DNA from: Candidatus Thalassarchaeaceae archaeon
Lineage (GTDB): Archaea > Thermoplasmatota > Poseidoniia > Poseidoniales > Thalassarchaeaceae
DNA: 19,260 nucleotides
Direction of reading: 5' to 3'
NCBI GenBank assembly: GCA_030745885.1
Contig: JASLNR010000036.1
Span: 1-19,260, forward strand
The first letter of the stretch is position 1. Every line of letters begins with the position of its first letter. Position numbers and translations under genes: made by a program. This document shows, in pieces, positions 2,840 through 11,138 of the stretch. The notes under the pieces were generated by a model. It made no database searches. It was not told the DNA's origin and was given only the letters and a program-made list of their open reading frames with translations.

Positions 2840-2873
2840 GTGTAGCCCCTGATCACTGACTCGGGCATTACCA

Positions 2874-3419
2874 CTAATTCCCCAAATCCCCTTTGGCGAT
2901 CTTTCTAGCCATCGATTTGGCATTGGCCTTAACCTTCTTGATTTTCCCGACCATCGCCCTGTGCATGGCCTTGGTCTCGGCAACGGCCTTTCTTGTCCTC
3001 TTCAGTTCCTCCTTAGCCTGGGCCATCTCTCCGGTCTCTTTCCTCAACTTCTCTTCGGTCTCTTCCTTCAACGTCTCAATAGCCTTGATCTTCTCTTCGG
3101 TCTCTTTCTTCAACGTCTCAAGGGGATTTGTCTTCGAATTCTCACCTGCCAACGCCGGCCCCCACTCAAACGCTCCCACCGAGTGGCCTTCGGGTTCCGC
3201 CGTCTCGTCCTTCTGGTGCTGTAGAGGTTCCTCTCGCACCTTTTCCAGCGCAAGCGTCGGACGCTCCCACGTTACCTGTTGCGTTACAGTGTGCGCGTAG
3301 TAAGGGCGGTTGTGCTCGGCGCTCCAATGCTGGGTCCAGCCGCTCGGAAGCGCTTGTGCCCCCTCCCCACTGGCCCCCACAGAGGTCGCCTCCTTCGTCT
3401 CATCTTCGCTGAAGACCAC
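2874..3419 (-). CDS. WW-domain protein with C-terminal charged coiled coil
   Basis: A 181-residue protein with no archaeal family that I recognise. Residues 24-54 form a clear WW domain: LPSGW opening with Trp28, aromatic pair Tyr40-Tyr41 after NRP, His43, Thr46, second Trp51 and closing Pro54. Twenty-two residues separate the two tryptophans, as is canonical. In eukaryotes this fold binds proline-rich ligands such as PPxY. Residues 55-98 are a low-complexity acidic linker. Residues 99-150 are a Glu/Lys-rich coiled coil built on a repeated ETLKxETEEK unit, and residues 157-176 form a very basic tail. There is no signal peptide or membrane segment. The GTG start at 3419 is the first acceptable start after the linker-free N-terminus, and a TATA-like element lies about 28 bases upstream, which suggests a leaderless transcript. 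The gene is more AT-rich than its neighbours. The domain call is strong; the function is unknown. Confidence 0.82.
   Translation of the reverse strand: MVFSEDETKEATSVGASGEGAQALPSGWTQHWSAEHNRPYYAHTVTQQVTWERPTLALEKVREEPLQHQKDETAEPEGHSVGAFEWGPALAGENSKTNPLETLKKETEEKIKAIETLKEETEEKLRKETGEMAQAKEELKRTRKAVAETKAMHRAMVGKIKKVKANAKSMARKIAKGDLGN
3049..3121 (-). repeat. 42-bp tandem repeat in the coiled-coil coding region
   Basis: Two near-identical 31-base copies lie at 3049-3079 and 3091-3121, offset by 42 bases (14 codons), with a shorter relative from about 3027. They encode the repeated ETLKxETEEK heptad-like units of the WW protein. This is intragenic duplication that lengthens the coiled coil. Confidence 0.7.
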
Positions 3420-3439
3420 GCATACCGCAGGCAGGGGGA

Positions 3440-3452
3440 CGATAAGATATCT
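3440..3452 (-). promoter_or_regulatory. Candidate TATA box for the WW gene
   Basis: On the minus strand this reads as an AT-rich AGATATCTTAT element about 28 bases upstream of the GTG at 3419. That spacing would put transcription start at or next to the start codon, giving a leaderless mRNA. This rests on position and composition only. Confidence 0.4.
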
Positions 3453-3563
3453 CTCAATAACCGAGTGGTATAGGGGGTTTCGGTTAGTTCGTATTCACAG
3501 GAGTTCGCATGTCCCCCTTCCTCGGAAGGCTTGAAGTCGCGACCACAGTGGCGGGGACGCTAC

Positions 3564-3639
3564 GGGACTGTAGCTCAGCTGGGAGAGCGCCGCACTGAAG
3601 ATGCGGAGGCCGCTGGTTCAAGTCCGGCCAGTCCCACCA
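3564..3639 (+). tRNA. tRNA-Phe (GAA) with encoded CCA
   Basis: A complete cloverleaf can be drawn. The acceptor stem GGGACTG (3564-3570) pairs with CAGTCCC (3629-3635) over all 7 bp. U8-A9 follow, then the D stem GCTC/GAGC. The anticodon stem CCGCA/TGCGG encloses the loop CTGAAGA, with anticodon GAA at 3597-3599. The variable loop is AGGCC, and the T arm GCTGG-TTCAAGT-CCGGC has one G-U pair. The discriminator is A3636, and CCA is encoded at 3637-3639. No intron. No clear TATA element lies at the expected distance upstream, so the transcript may begin further upstream and be processed. Confidence 0.96.
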
Positions 3640-3674: not shown

Positions 3675-4535
3675 TCATTTGGCGTCGGCTAGAATGCTGG
3701 CCTGGAGCGCGTGGAGCTTGGCGATGCCGGAGGTCGCGGCGTCAATCATGCCATCGAGCTCCCCTCTGGTGTATGTGGCCTCCTCCCCGGTGCCCTGGAC
3801 CTCGACGAAGCCGCCATCGCTGGTCATCACGACGTTCATGTCGACGTCGGCATTGCTGTCCAGGACATAGTCCAAGTCGGTTCTGACCGAGCCCCCCACC
3901 ATTCCGACGCTGAGTGCGGCCACGTCGTTGGCCATGACGGCCGCCTCGTGCTCCGCTTGCCCCCCTTCTGAGAGGACGGGTTGCTCTGCTCCCTTCCTGA
4001 TATCGTCCCTCGAGAGCCTGAGATCTGCTGGGAGGCACTCTCCGGATGCGATGAGTCTGCGAATGGCTAGCCTGAGCCCGATGCTGGCCGCCGTAATGGA
4101 TGCGCACCTAGTCCCCCCGTCGGCATTTAGCACGTCGCAGTCGACAGTGAGGGCGACCGGTCCCAGATGATCCAGGTCCACGGCTCCCCGCATCGAGCGG
4201 GCGACCAGCCGCTCTATCTCATGGGTCCTGCCCTTGGCGCCGCCGCGCTCCCTTCGAAACCTCGTATCAGTGGAGGCGGGCAGTAGTGAGTACTCCGCGT
4301 GCACCCATCCCCGGTTGGCGTCGCGAGGGAACCAGCGGGGGAGGGAGGGTGCCTTGGTGACGCAGACGAGGACTTGGGTCTCGCCCTGGCGGTAGAGCAG
4401 GGAGGACAGGGCATTGGGGGTGAAGTCCAGAGTGACCTCGACTCCCCTGAGTTCGTTGTTCGCCCGATCGCTGCTACCAGTCCCGGTCTTAATCTTCGCC
4501 ATGTCCCGGCGAGCCCATTCACTCGGATGAATCAT
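3675..4535 (-). CDS. rph: Bacterial-type ribonuclease PH
   Basis: RNase PH, a phosphorolytic 3'-to-5' exoribonuclease that trims tRNA 3' ends. The sequence follows bacterial RPH rather than archaeal exosome Rrp41: RGWVHAEYSLLP, the phosphate-site GRTHEIERLVARS (103-115), DCDVLNADGGTR (132-143), and the catalytic block DLDYVLDSNADVDMN, with Asp226 and Asp232 in the positions of the two bacterial catalytic aspartates, then FVEVQGTGE. At 286 residues it is longer than the usual ~240-255. The extra length is at the N-terminus and in an inserted charged segment around residues 163-200. The ATG at 4535 overlaps the upstream mog stop (ATGA). An internal ATG at 4502 (MAKIKTG) is an alternative start closer to the family N-terminus. 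The gene is co-transcribed after mog. Confidence 0.88.
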   Translation of the reverse strand: MIHPSEWARRDMAKIKTGTGSSDRANNELRGVEVTLDFTPNALSSLLYRQGETQVLVCVTKAPSLPRWFPRDANRGWVHAEYSLLPASTDTRFRRERGGAKGRTHEIERLVARSMRGAVDLDHLGPVALTVDCDVLNADGGTRCASITAASIGLRLAIRRLIASGECLPADLRLSRDDIRKGAEQPVLSEGGQAEHEAAVMANDVAALSVGMVGGSVRTDLDYVLDSNADVDMNVVMTSDGGFVEVQGTGEEATYTRGELDGMIDAATSGIAKLHALQASILADAK

Positions 4536-7010: not shown

Positions 7011-7945
7011 TGGCACAAGCCACACGGAGATGGGTTCGACAGAGCGCGGTGAGGATCTTCGCCCAGGAGTTCTTCGAGGCATCCCTGATTGAAGAGGGCT
7101 CGGGGGAGTACGATCCATCCTTCGTCGTCACCAAACTGGGGGCGAAGGTCAATCGTTGCCTCGTGGGTGGCGTCATCGACAGGATCGAGCGGCGTGAGGG
7201 TGATAGCGGCCCTTACTACTCCGGCCAGATCAGGGACCTAACGGGTGCCCATTACTTCAGCGTGGCACCGTTCCAGCCGGAGCTTCATGCTGACACTGAA
7301 GAGCTGCTGGCCAGATTCGAGTCAGGCGACCGCTTCCTGATGTTAATAGTCGGCAGGGCGCGGTGGTCCGAGTCCGAGGACGGCGGCATTTTCACCTCGA
7401 TACGGGCCGAGGACTTCACAATCGTCGAAAAGGATCGTTACAAGAGATGGTTGGTCGAAGCAGCAGACGCGACCCTGAGGCGCTTGGATGCACATTCCGC
7501 GTCGATGGAGAGCGAACTGAGTCCGGCAGCACTGGAGGCAGCAGGCGTTCCGCCGGACCTAGTGGACGGCCTCATCCTATCAAGAGGGCACTACGCCGAC
7601 TTCGATTCGGAGGGGTATCGTGTTGGCGTGCTGCGGGCGCTCTCGCTGGCAAGTGGCAGGACGGATTCTTTGGAGTCCGTCGCCCCGGCGCCGGAGCCTG
7701 AGCAGTCCCAGCCAACGGAGCAGGCAGGGGGGCCGGCCGGTCCCGTCGATGCCAGTCAGGTGATTCTCAACCTGCTTTCGTCCAAGGGGGGCGAGTTGGT
7801 TGAGTACGATGCCCTAGTGGGGGCATGCACTTCTGCGGGCGCGTCCAGAGAGGCGGCCGAGGATGCCATTGAGAACCTCCGGGATATCGGAGGCGAGATC
7901 ATCGAGCCGCGCTTCGGCTTCTTCCAGATCCTCCAAGGTGGCTAG
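7007..7945 (+). CDS. RPA-associated protein (COG3390 family)
   Basis: The partner subunit of archaeal RPA. The diagnostic N-terminal RxxAxRxFAxEF motif is present (RQSAVRIFAQEF), followed by an OB fold (about residues 45-140) with CLVGGVIDRIER and YSGQIRDLTG strands. The middle is acidic and Pro/Gln-rich, which suggests a flexible linker. The last ~65 residues (ASQVILNLLSSKGG to EPRFGFFQIL) look like a winged-helix domain, commonly used for protein contacts in RPA32-like subunits. The ATG at 7007 overlaps the RPA stop by four bases, and an ATG at 7010 and a GTG at 6992 are alternatives. Its TAG stop shares a CTAG palindrome with the stop of the opposing gene. Confidence 0.86.
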   Translation: MMAQATRRWVRQSAVRIFAQEFFEASLIEEGSGEYDPSFVVTKLGAKVNRCLVGGVIDRIERREGDSGPYYSGQIRDLTGAHYFSVAPFQPELHADTEELLARFESGDRFLMLIVGRARWSESEDGGIFTSIRAEDFTIVEKDRYKRWLVEAADATLRRLDAHSASMESELSPAALEAAGVPPDLVDGLILSRGHYADFDSEGYRVGVLRALSLASGRTDSLESVAPAPEPEQSQPTEQAGGPAGPVDASQVILNLLSSKGGELVEYDALVGACTSAGASREAAEDAIENLRDIGGEIIEPRFGFFQILQGG

Positions 7946-8979
7946 GCGTCCTCGTCAGGAATGAGCAACTCGACCTCGGCCAACTTGCTCCTGATCCTCT
8001 CGATTGTCGATTCGGTGTCCTCGCTGATCTCGTCCCCAATTCTAGGGGCATCCATTGCCGCGCCCTTGACCTCGGCGATATTTGTTGCGACCGTGAGGAT
8101 CCTGTGCCTGACCAACTGCTCGTCCAAGGGCCACCCCCTGCGCCCTGCTAGGCGGAGGAGGAGCTCCTTCTCGGCTTGGCCCCAGACCCCCCCATGGCCC
8201 CTCAGAATCGTACCCACCATACGCTCTAGGTCCTCGACGCGGGCCTGAATCGTAAGCAGGTCGCCTTGCACCGAGGCGGCCTGCTTGTCGACCCCTAGCA
8301 CCAAGGAGTCCCTAGCATCCTCGATAACAGCCTTGGCTGGAATCGCTTGGAAATCGGTGTCTCGCACCGGTTCCCCGACGGTGATCTCATCGGCCCCCTC
8401 ATCCCGTGGTTCCTCGAACATCGGAGATTGGAGTCCGTTTCTCCTCAAGCTCCTCTTGATTCGGCCCCATCCGTTGACCTGACTGGTCAGGACACCGGCG
8501 ACCCTACCCATCAGAACGGTCCTATTGCCCGTCAAATCCAATTCGAGCCTCTTGCAGAGCCCATGCAGGTCATCGCGACCCATCTCGGCCAATCGTTCGA
8601 TGGTCAGTCTCCTAGAGTCGTAATTGAGGTGGAGCCAAAGGCGTTGACGCCTCTCCTTGTGGGAGCCTGATGACTTGACTCCGAAGACCTTCAAGACATC
8701 CCCCGCATCCTTGTGGGACATCGCTTGGATTCCTTCCCACGAGAGATCCAGGTCTGGCAGCACCTCTTCGCAGATCAGCTTGGCCCGAAGGACCTCCACA
8801 GAGCCGCTCTTTGGGATTCCGCACTCCTCGGCCCTCTCCCTGAGCTTCTGGAGTCGGTCCGTGTACAACGAACTCAGCAATCCCGAGTCTACCTGCATGG
8901 AACCACGCTGCACCTCGCCCGAGGGGGTATTTGTTATCGCTTGCCCCCCCCAGCGGTCGCTCTCGTGGGATTTTACCAC
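7942..8979 (-). CDS. Protein with three SAP-like repeats
   Basis: A 345-residue protein of unknown role. Residues 39-72, 86-118 and 131-164 look like successive SAP-type helix-extended-helix units: each has a helix with LxxL or LKxx spacing, a G-[IV]-x-x-[ST]-G turn (GIPKSG, GVKSSG, LDLTG) and a second helix. SAP domains bind DNA or RNA. The middle (185-225) is acidic and probably disordered. The C-terminal third is helical, with a coiled-coil-like stretch (ASVQGDLLTIQARVEDLERMV) and a final amphipathic segment. The GTG start at 8979 is preceded by GGTGAT at good spacing, 19 bases after the HemC-like gene, so the two form one unit. It converges on the RPA operon, and a DNA-related role is an inference. 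Confidence 0.6.
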   Translation of the reverse strand: MVKSHESDRWGGQAITNTPSGEVQRGSMQVDSGLLSSLYTDRLQKLRERAEECGIPKSGSVEVLRAKLICEEVLPDLDLSWEGIQAMSHKDAGDVLKVFGVKSSGSHKERRQRLWLHLNYDSRRLTIERLAEMGRDDLHGLCKRLELDLTGNRTVLMGRVAGVLTSQVNGWGRIKRSLRRNGLQSPMFEEPRDEGADEITVGEPVRDTDFQAIPAKAVIEDARDSLVLGVDKQAASVQGDLLTIQARVEDLERMVGTILRGHGGVWGQAEKELLLRLAGRRGWPLDEQLVRHRILTVATNIAEVKGAAMDAPRIGDEISEDTESTIERIRSKLAEVELLIPDEDA

Positions 8980-8998: not shown

Positions 8999-10063
8999 TC
9001 AGGGGACGATGAAGGGCGGTGCCTCCGCATCTGTTGGGTGGTCCTTGGGGACCTCCCTAGAGGCCTCTTTGAGCAATTGTTTCCAATCCCTGATGGTCGA
9101 GAGAGTCGCAAACTGATATTCTGAGTGCACCACGAGACGGTTCAGGGCGAGGGTCCTGCGGCCATCCTCAGAGACTAGCTCCATCCTCAGTTCCACGTGC
9201 ACCTCATCTTCCAGGATCTCGCCATCGGCGCTCTGGCAGGCCTCCTCCATAATGGGGTCCTTCTCCTCTTCGGCCTGCCTTAGCAACGAGCCGACCTGCC
9301 GGTGCCTAACCTGCAGTCCAATCATGCCAGCGAGATGCTCGCCCAGCTCTTTCAGCACCCTGCTTTGCACCCAAAGCGAGGTATTGCCTTCGGCCTCGGT
9401 GACACGCCGAGAGATGGTCGAGGGGAACCTCATTCTCGCGATTATCGCGATTAGGTCGGAGTAGGGTGGAGGTAGGAAATGCGCGCCCCCCCTCTCCTGG
9501 GCGAAGGGCATGAGGGTGTGCCGGCGCTCTGTTTGGCCGGATGACTCGTAGGCTGCCCTAGATATGACGAAGCCATCAATCTCGCCGCTCTCTTGCAAGT
9601 CCCCCAACCACCTCGCCCTCGCGATTGCCTCAAGCGGGGCTTTTGGGGTCAGACGACTGAGGGGGACATCCTCGGATGCAATCACCGTCAAATCTGGTCG
9701 GGCCCTGAGCAACTGCCTGCGGGTCAGAGTAGAATCGGAGACGATAACGGCCGATTTGGGCTGGTAGAACAACCTGTTTCCTGAGACTAGGACCAGGTTC
9801 GGCCTCCTAGGTGTTCTTGCTCCGATTGGCTCGCACCCCAATCGGGATATCTCAGTCCCCCTACCATGCATCAAACTGGCTGGAACGGCAAGCAGATCGA
9901 TGAGTCCGTTGCTCAGTAGCTCCAAGGCGGCATCGAAGTCCGGGACCCGCTGGACCTCAGACTCGATATCCCGGACCTCAGATGATTCTAGAAATTCGGA
10001 TAGGGGCGAATAAACCGGGCAGTCAACCGAATCCAGCGTCCCAACAACTAGCCGGTCATTCAT
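8999..10063 (-). CDS. Divergent HemC-like (hydroxymethylbilane synthase-like) protein
   Basis: A 354-residue protein whose first two domains follow hydroxymethylbilane synthase. RLVVGTLDS is the first strand. ALELLSNGLIDLLAVPASLM corresponds to 'L..G.iDlaVHSlKDvP'. Then come VLVSGN, the signature LTRRQLLRARPDLTVI, and a segment matching the '.G..DaivlA.AgL.R' helix (GEIDGFVISRAAYESSG). The HSLKD motif is replaced by AVPASLM, and I find no cysteine in the usual cofactor-attachment context, so tetrapyrrole synthesis seems unlikely. The fold is the periplasmic-binding-protein type. The last ~110 residues are Glu-rich and novel to me. The open frame continues upstream to 10321, but ATG 10063 has a GAGGTGG site and avoids overlapping the divergent gene. 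A PPPY motif lies at 9461-9472. Confidence 0.55.
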   Translation of the reverse strand: MNDRLVVGTLDSVDCPVYSPLSEFLESSEVRDIESEVQRVPDFDAALELLSNGLIDLLAVPASLMHGRGTEISRLGCEPIGARTPRRPNLVLVSGNRLFYQPKSAVIVSDSTLTRRQLLRARPDLTVIASEDVPLSRLTPKAPLEAIARARWLGDLQESGEIDGFVISRAAYESSGQTERRHTLMPFAQERGGAHFLPPPYSDLIAIIARMRFPSTISRRVTEAEGNTSLWVQSRVLKELGEHLAGMIGLQVRHRQVGSLLRQAEEEKDPIMEEACQSADGEILEDEVHVELRMELVSEDGRRTLALNRLVVHSEYQFATLSTIRDWKQLLKEASREVPKDHPTDAEAPPFIVP

Positions 10064-10123
10064 CGCATCCACCTCTAGGGAGGGGGCACGTCTCGTACCC
10101 GTTCTGACCCGCGTGCGCACCTG

Positions 10124-10133
10124 TTGATATATG
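10124..10133 (+). promoter_or_regulatory. TATA box of the prenyl synthase gene
   Basis: TTGATATATG is an AT-rich island in GC-rich sequence. A start point 25-27 bases downstream of its centre falls on the ATG at 10155, so a leaderless mRNA is likely. It also argues against the upstream in-frame ATG at 10131, which overlaps the element. Confidence 0.55.
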
Positions 10134-10154
10134 CGACCCCCGGGATGGCCCATC

Positions 10155-11138
10155 ATGAGCGTCATGCAGGGCGATGTCGCTCCCTTGGAATCATACAAGA
10201 ACAGAATCGAGGACGAGATTGAGAAGCTGGTTCTGGCGCGTATGAGCTCCCCGGAGGAGCAACCGGCGATGGCCCTCGCAAGGGGCGTTCTGTTGGCCGG
10301 TGGAAAAAGGTACAGGCCCATATTGGGCCTCCTTGCCTACGAAGCCTGTGGGGGCAAGGATGTTGACAAGGTGATGAATTTCGTCTTGTCCGCCGAACTG
10401 ATTCACACTGCGACTCTGGTTCACGACGATGTTTACGATAGATCGAAGATGCGCCGTGGCAAGCCCACAATCCATACATCGCATGGGATTTCGCATGCAA
10501 TCATAGCCGGTGATTACCTATTCGCACTGGGATTCGAACTTGGAGGCAGACATGAAGAGAGAATCATCGATATGGTCAGGACTTCGTGCGTTCGGGTGGC
10601 CTCTGGGGAAATCCTCCAGTTGGAACACATAGGTGACCTCAGCACCAAGCCGGAGGACTACTATGAGATAATAGATGGGAAGACAGCAGGGCCGTTTGCA
10701 ACAGCGTGCTCCTGCGCTGCAATCGTAGCTGCCCCCCACGAGGATTTTGTCGAGCCAATGTGGAACTACGGGATGGAAATGGGGAGGGCTTTCCAAATGG
10801 TCGATGACCTGCTTGACCTTATCGGGGACGAGACGATTGGCAAGCCTAGGGGAACGGATGTCCACGAAGGCAAGATGACGCTGCCGATAATCCACGCCCT
10901 GACGGTAATGCACGGTGCGGAGCGAGACCATCTCGCCGATGTGATTACCAACTTCAACGATTCTAGACTGAGTGAACTCACCGATCTGCTGGAGCGTGCG
11001 GGGTCCTTCGACTACTCGCGGCTGCTAATCTCCAACCACGTCGAACGAGCATTGGGGAGTTTGGGTCAATTACCGGACTCAGATGCCAAGAAGCGGCTCA
11101 TTGATTTCGCAGAGATGTCCAAGTCCCGTACAAATTAG
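10155..11138 (+). CDS. idsA: Polyprenyl / geranylgeranyl diphosphate synthase
   Basis: A trans-isoprenyl diphosphate synthase that condenses isopentenyl diphosphate onto allylic diphosphates to give the C20 chain of archaeal lipids. Seen are GGKRYRPILG, the first Asp-rich motif DDVYD (residues 91-95 from this start) followed by RSKMRRGKPT, the DGKTAGPF lysine motif, and the second Asp-rich motif DDLLD (217-221). The residue five before the first Asp is Ala, so no bulky group blocks chain growth at that site; C20 or a longer product is possible. The length of 327 is typical. Start 10155 is chosen over 10131 because of the TATA box position. The geranylgeranyl reductase gene follows after 15 bases, which supports a lipid role. 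Confidence 0.9.
   Translation: MSVMQGDVAPLESYKNRIEDEIEKLVLARMSSPEEQPAMALARGVLLAGGKRYRPILGLLAYEACGGKDVDKVMNFVLSAELIHTATLVHDDVYDRSKMRRGKPTIHTSHGISHAIIAGDYLFALGFELGGRHEERIIDMVRTSCVRVASGEILQLEHIGDLSTKPEDYYEIIDGKTAGPFATACSCAAIVAAPHEDFVEPMWNYGMEMGRAFQMVDDLLDLIGDETIGKPRGTDVHEGKMTLPIIHALTVMHGAERDHLADVITNFNDSRLSELTDLLERAGSFDYSRLLISNHVERALGSLGQLPDSDAKKRLIDFAEMSKSRTN

What the first reader, a model, noticed from the sequence alone, without database searches (positions are those of the whole stretch)
3258..3350. WW domain in an archaeal protein
Residues 24-54 of the minus-strand protein carry every hallmark of a WW domain: LPxGW opening, tryptophans 22 residues apart, a YY pair after NRP, H43/T46 and a closing Pro. 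WW modules are mainly a eukaryotic recognition device for proline-rich peptides. Joined to a charged coiled coil and a basic tail, in locally AT-rich sequence next to a tRNA gene, this looks like an acquired adaptor that could scaffold proteins or tether them to nucleic acid. Other possibilities are an old archaeal domain or a recent eukaryote-to-archaeon transfer.
Basis: partly seen in the sequence, partly recalled or inferred. Interest (0 to 1): 0.85.

Follow-up and report, generated by a model that had tools for sequence, protein, structure and literature searches.

The report
Recently gained archaeal WW-domain protein
A marine archaeon carries a small, recently gained gene whose protein has a true WW domain, a proline-peptide-binding module known almost only from eukaryotes, joined to a long charged helix, and a few of its relatives carry WW domains in three other, unrelated proteins.

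Summary
The minus-strand ORF 2874-3419 (181 aa) has a WW domain at residues 24-54 (PF00397, E 7.7e-11, 42.3 bits, cut-off 26.9). AlphaFold gives the WW sheet, and the PDB matches shown are WW-bearing. The window is from Ca. Thalassarchaeaceae. The gene is a 678-bp insertion between a TIM-barrel gene and tRNA-Phe: both closest relatives have an empty site, 20 of 80 related loci keep a 48-56 bp gap, and 0 of 80 carry this family. Protein searches found 5 clusters, the window's own included. WW is not unique to this gene: 14 of 318 genomes of the order have one over the cut-off, in three other architectures. The window's WW scores higher with 5 of 7 human WW domains than with any of those, which suggests but does not prove a separate gain. 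Most likely role, inferred: an adaptor that binds proline-rich peptides through WW and self-associates or tethers through its helix. The ligand is unknown; residues argue against classical PPxY or phospho-Ser-Pro binding. 'Every hallmark' and 'AT-rich' are overstated.

The parts
3258..3350 (-). WW domain, protein residues 24-54
   Evidence: PF00397 E 7.7e-11; WW fold predicted and matched to solved WW structures
2874..3419 (-). 181-aa WW plus helix protein, GTG start (P0002-P0005 start with M at the same place)
   Evidence: ORF; 4 further protein clusters align over the whole length, 64-72% identity
2892..3125 (-). long charged alpha helix, residues 99-176 (coiled coil or single helix)
   Evidence: AlphaFold helix; block pLDDT 89-95 over residues 101-170
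2877..2999 (-). basic C-terminal part, residues 141-181; residues 146-181 are the best-conserved stretch tested
   Evidence: 13 K+R against 2 D+E; 32-33 of 36 residues identical to the four relatives
3024..3131 (-). imperfect DNA repeats (start spacing 24 and 42 bases) coding for the repeated helix segments
   Evidence: the relatives differ in length nearby
2842..3519 (.). inserted segment (678 bp) absent from the two closest relatives
   Evidence: similarity to L001 stops at 2841 and resumes at 3520; L001 has 3 bases between
3520..3639 (+). conserved tRNA upstream stretch and tRNA-Phe (3564-3639), the right flank
   Evidence: ARAGORN; alignment to L001 and L002
1709..2839 (+). TIM-barrel (AP endonuclease 2 family) gene, left flank, convergent with the WW gene
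   Evidence: PF01261; 3064 homologues at E 1e-30 or better among 7996 scored candidates

Best explanation
A real, lineage-restricted archaeal gene. SHOWN: it encodes an N-terminal WW domain, a variable linker and a long charged helix with a basic end (the helix and fold by prediction), and it sits in a short segment that is missing between the TIM-barrel gene and tRNA-Phe in the closest relatives, so it was most simply gained in this Thalassarchaeaceae lineage. INFERRED: the WW domain (Y40 and W51 forming the usual proline groove, recalled) binds a proline-containing stretch of a partner protein; the helix lets the protein self-associate or dock on a second partner, with the conserved basic end free to touch nucleic acid or acidic surfaces. 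The protein would then work as a small adaptor that gathers partners rather than as an enzyme. The ligand is probably a PP-type core (as for PRPF40A-like WW domains, recalled); the residues do not favour PPxY or phospho-Ser-Pro.
For: PF00397 over cut-off in the window protein and in P0002 and P0003. WW fold, with WW-bearing structures as matches. Conservation concentrated in WW (24-25 of 31 identical) and in the basic end (32-33 of 36), with the linker loose (13 of 38 to 20 of 32), as expected for two working ends and a spacer. W28, Y40, Y41, W51 and P54 invariant in the 6 rows. No enzyme family found. Empty site in L001 and L002, and 0 of 80 loci carry the family. Other archaea of the same order carry WW beside helices or proline-rich tails.
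Against: No ligand is known and the genome is not held. Among 20 predicted window proteins the motifs tried (PPxY, PPLP, PPP and others) occur once: a PPPY in the ORF 8999-10321, which does not point to WW because it lies in a conserved FLPxPYSDL stretch; 16 of 52 related loci that cover it have PPxY there, L001 included, and none of them has the WW gene. The alignment has 6 rows, 4 of them distinct from the window. The full-length model has low overall confidence (pLDDT 65.5, pTM 0.29), so self-association is not shown. A WW fold can also serve as a dimer surface: the DGCR8 dimerization domain is among the matches.
Confidence: 0.55

Rival explanations
1. The WW fold is kept only as a structural or dimerization surface and binds no proline peptide.
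For: The DGCR8 dimerization domain is among the structural matches; no convincing proline-motif partner in the window; A42 replaces a residue that is Y, V or F in the alignments.
Against: Groove residues Y40 and W51 are invariant in all 6 rows, and the score is well over the cut-off for WW.
Confidence: 0.2
2. Cargo of a mobile element or virus that uses the tRNA-proximal site, so that the gene serves the element or is passing ballast.
For: Clean small insertion next to a tRNA gene, at a place where 23 of 80 related loci have more than 2.6 kb, in the two looked at (L003, L010) other genes; patchy spread.
Against: No relative in IMG/VR by two pattern scans, in phage records or plasmid records; no integrase family among the 11 window proteins scanned, no flanking direct repeat of 11 bases or more; insertion is upstream of the tRNA, not in its 3' end.
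Confidence: 0.15
3. A young orphan ORF without function in which the WW resemblance is left over from a captured fragment.
For: Only 5 clusters found, the window's own included; codon score third lowest of 20 window genes (0.048).
Against: Four other clusters keep the start and both ends at 64-72% identity.
Confidence: 0.07
4. Eukaryotic contamination or misassembly.
For: Closest solved relatives are eukaryotic; P0002-P0005 lie on contigs of at most 1,472 bases.
Against: Both flanks are Thalassarchaeaceae DNA that aligns to within a few bases of the insert; cluster P0001 lies on 3 contigs, the longest 145,796 bases; codon usage is within the window's range.
Confidence: 0.03

Closest known systems
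PCIF1 (CAPAM) WW domain, PDB 2jx8
   Same: Best single-domain alignment among the five shown (30.8 bits; 15 of 31 identical, no gap, same loop length, shared NRPYY and W-S)
   Different: PCIF1 is a eukaryotic methyltransferase (recalled); no such domain here; the Arg-Arg after the shared Ser is Ala-Glu here
PRPF40A/FBP11 WW1 (PDB 8pxw, 2l5f)
   Same: 15 of 28 identical; Thr at the position where Itch WW1 has His
   Different: First loop one residue shorter and three aromatic residues in a row where the window has Y-Y-A
Charged, coiled-coil-like WW proteins of the same order (L083, L086, L090-L097; open frames of 649-795 codons)
   Same: Archaeal, same order, WW in a variable linker beside helical-looking sequence
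   Different: No LPxGW start, shorter first loop; WW identity to the window at best 12 of 28; the family profile A1 matched none of the five genomes of this kind that were in the family-level search (G292, G401-G404)
Mycobacterial PMT WW-like domain (PMC12331936, passages read)
   Same: Proposed prokaryotic proline-selecting WW-like module
   Different: By the paper's own words it has an incomplete signature and lacks a third strand; here PF00397 matches over its full length

Membership tests
WW domain (PF00397) | Profile score over the curated cut-off | tested here: met
   42.3 bits against 26.9, positions 1-31 of 31
WW domain (PF00397) | Two spaced tryptophans, aromatic pair, closing proline | tested here: met
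   W28, W51, Y40-Y41, P54 invariant in the 6 rows
WW domain (PF00397) | Three-stranded antiparallel sheet | tested here: met
WW domain (PF00397) | Binds proline-rich peptides | not testable with these tools
   No experiment; own genome not held
Group I WW (PPxY binders; definition recalled) | His two residues after the last hydrophobic residue of strand 2 | tested here: not met
   The Itch WW1 His is matched by T44 in the alignment
Group IV WW (Pin1-type phospho-Ser/Thr-Pro; definition recalled) | Ser-Arg pair in loop 1 that holds the phosphate | tested here: not met
   Loop length equals that of PCIF1, but S33 is followed by A34 where PCIF1 has S-R; Pin1 letters were not printed and are recalled
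Window WW protein family (P0001-P0005) | WW plus helix plus basic end over the full length | tested here: met
   Alignment A1; 64-72% identity to P0002-P0005, full query coverage

The most novel reading that the evidence does not exclude
Poseidoniales have taken in WW modules more than once, the window's from a eukaryote-like source in the plankton and independently of the other three architectures, and use them as a home-made proline-motif adaptor network: a eukaryotic recognition module put to work in free-living archaea outside the Asgard group.
Probability: 0.3. Interest if true: 0.8.

Novelty: new variant of a known kind. Interest (0 to 1): 0.55.

Why it matters
WW domains are treated as a eukaryotic recognition device; PMC12331936 (2025, passages read) states they had so far been characterised only in eukaryotic proteins. 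Here full WW domains sit in archaeal contigs, in four architectures within one order, and one arrived recently enough for the empty site to be read base by base. Whether a prokaryote can use WW-proline recognition thus becomes directly testable with small soluble domains. It also warns against reading WW as a mark of eukaryotic contamination in marine bins.

Tried and rejected
Relatives of the protein in GTDB species genomes by conserved peptides: 31 pattern matches, none confirmed. Family profile A1 in 148 genomes of the family: 0, without a positive control. PF00397 in six relatives' genomes: 0, and there nothing rang in the controls either. Viral contigs twice, phages, plasmids (also a DNA query of the ATPase A gene): nothing. 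A DNA pattern for a PPLP-like motif in two genomes was useless: hits were about as frequent as with the reversed pattern. Promoter and terminator scan gave nothing for this gene. Rfam found only the tRNA in the window. Arcadin-4, Cast and other weak hits of the helix are far below their cut-offs and read as coiled-coil cross-talk. The WW profile A2 over 309 genomes of the order found the same 14 plus 4 weak matches (E 0.001-0.008, 16-20 profile positions), taken as chance. Three matches at E 0.003-0.009 below the cut-off (L087-L089) were dropped. My first codon and motif scripts read the ORF 8999-10321 out of frame; one search repeats both in frame and replaces them: it removed an apparent oddity of that ORF and brought up its PPPY motif, which one search then showed to be shared with relatives that lack the WW gene. 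Literature: WW domain with Marine Group II, Poseidoniales or Thermoplasmat gave 0 papers each; a looser search (any two of WW domain, archaea, Poseidoniales) gave 199 papers, 20 listed, none of the 20 with WW domain; with Asgard 3, archaeon 19 (15 listed), euryarchae 3; none of those listed announces archaeal WW proteins by title or by the start of the abstract shown; the 2 mentions in PMC4922055 are reference titles. The library lacks most subscription papers and all preprints.

Full report

Whose genome. The neighbouring TIM-barrel gene has 3064 homologues at E 1e-30 or better among 7996 scored candidates; of the 120 listed one is named Candidatus Thalassarchaeum. In genome contigs 104 relatives were confirmed and 80 kept; the best are L001 at 95% and L002, a Candidatus Thalassarchaeaceae bin, at 91%. 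That family belongs to the order Candidatus Poseidoniales. The window's own whole genome is not held.

An insertion. In the window 724 bp separate the TIM-barrel stop from tRNA-Phe. In L001 and L002 the gap is 49 and 54 bp. Alignment to L001 breaks after 2841 and resumes at 3520, with 3 bases in L001 in place of 678 in the window; the conserved stretch upstream of the tRNA is intact. Of 80 loci, 20 have a gap of 48-56 bp on the same strand, 1 has 155, 23 have more than 2.6 kb, 27 have the tRNA on the other strand and 9 have no tRNA-Phe match on the locus; a profile of the family hits the window and 0 of 80 loci. Gain in the window's lineage is simpler than repeated loss. No flanking direct repeat of 11 bases or more was found. 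In L003 and L010 the same interval holds a 78-codon frame that looks cold-shock-like (by eye) and an open frame of 1248 or 1245 codons, so the place takes cargo.

How rare. Two searches of 5.8 billion proteins gave the same 5 clusters, the first being the window's own; 654 and 7990 candidates were scored, so remote relatives can have been missed. Peptide patterns in GTDB species genomes and in viral contigs found no relative, nor did tblastn in phage and plasmid records. The profile search of 148 genomes of the family found none but had no positive control.

Not the only archaeal WW. PF00397 passes its cut-off in 14 of 318 genomes of the order and in 6 of 389 drawn from the phylum, all 6 being among the 14; the 14 named control genomes gave none. 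The 14 fall into three architectures, read from the frames: ten charged, helical-looking proteins (649-795 open codons) with WW in a variable linker; two proteins with WW near the N end, a proline-rich stretch and hydrophobic segments; two with DxDxDG-type repeats, one hydrophobic stretch and WW at the very C end. Helix, repeat and membrane calls here are by eye. Contigs of five of the 14 genomes were looked at; neighbours scanned include a Toprim protein that looks like archaeal DnaG (by eye), an NFACT protein, SOUL proteins and a thiolase. The two N-end WW genes share a SOUL neighbour. The ten coiled-coil-like proteins are 40-100% identical to L090, whereas 55 more of 65 matching genomes (of 311) have only partial or 20-37% matches, and no WW match lies in those proteins: WW looks like a module gained inside that family.

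Origin. Against the seven human WW stretches taken the window scores best with PCIF1 (15 of 31), GAS7 (15 of 31), PRPF40A WW1 (15 of 28), Itch WW1 (14 of 30) and Itch WW2 (14 of 32), all above every archaeal WW outside its family; but PRPF40A WW2 and Itch WW3 score below the best three archaeal ones, L093 (10 of 26), L086 (12 of 28) and L094 (10 of 28). The window keeps LPxGW and a longer first loop that the other archaeal ones lack. This favours a separate gain, perhaps from a eukaryote, but the comparison set is tiny and the domain short, so the donor is open.

How it may work. Conservation is high in WW and in the basic end and low in the linker. Groove residues are invariant in the six rows. 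The His of Itch WW1 is matched by T44, and the Ser-Arg of PCIF1 by S33-A34, so PPxY and phospho-peptide reading are unlikely; a PP-type core is my inference. The helix has imperfect repeats at the DNA level with spacings of 24 and 42 bases, and the relatives differ in length around it. An adaptor that binds one partner through WW and gathers copies or a second partner through the helix is the best-supported reading: its anatomy is shown or predicted, its action inferred.

Against the reading. The only proline motif of the kinds tried in 20 window proteins is a PPPY in the ORF 8999-10321. It sits in a conserved FLPxPYSDL stretch: of 52 related loci that cover it 16 have PPxY, L001 included, and none of them has the WW gene, so I do not read it as a ligand. 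The alignment is shallow; the helix could be a lone charged helix; a purely structural WW is possible. I saw no archaeal WW report in the searches named, of which mostly listings were seen; of PMC12331936, PMC4922055 and PMC2515105 I read passages only.

Noticed in passing
L083, L086, L090-L097 (WW near locus position 1501): Ten proteins of one charged, coiled-coil-like family in the order carry a WW in a variable linker; outside its family L083's WW scores best with PRPF40A WW1, 17 of 26.
   Followed up: partly
L081:620-1459 and L082:1387-2208: Small protein with WW near the N end followed at once by a proline-rich stretch and hydrophobic segments, beside SOUL genes in both genomes; a possible built-in WW ligand.
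   Followed up: partly
L138:5769-8696 and L140:7161-10082: Open frames of about 975 codons with DxDxDG-type repeats and a WW at the very C end behind a hydrophobic stretch.
   Followed up: partly
window 2840-3563; L003, L010: The interval between the TIM-barrel gene and tRNA-Phe differs among relatives: empty, WW gene, or a cold-shock-like frame plus an open frame of about 1245 codons.
   Followed up: partly
window 3675-4535 (-): RNase PH of the equivalog model TIGR01966 (234.3 bits, cut-off 141.5) rather than archaeal Rrp41 (68 bits, cut-off 318.7).
   Followed up: no
window 8999-10321 (-) and 7942-8979 (-): Two long ORFs without any Pfam or NCBIfam match; the first holds a conserved FLPxPYSDL stretch, PPPY in the window and L001.
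   Followed up: partly
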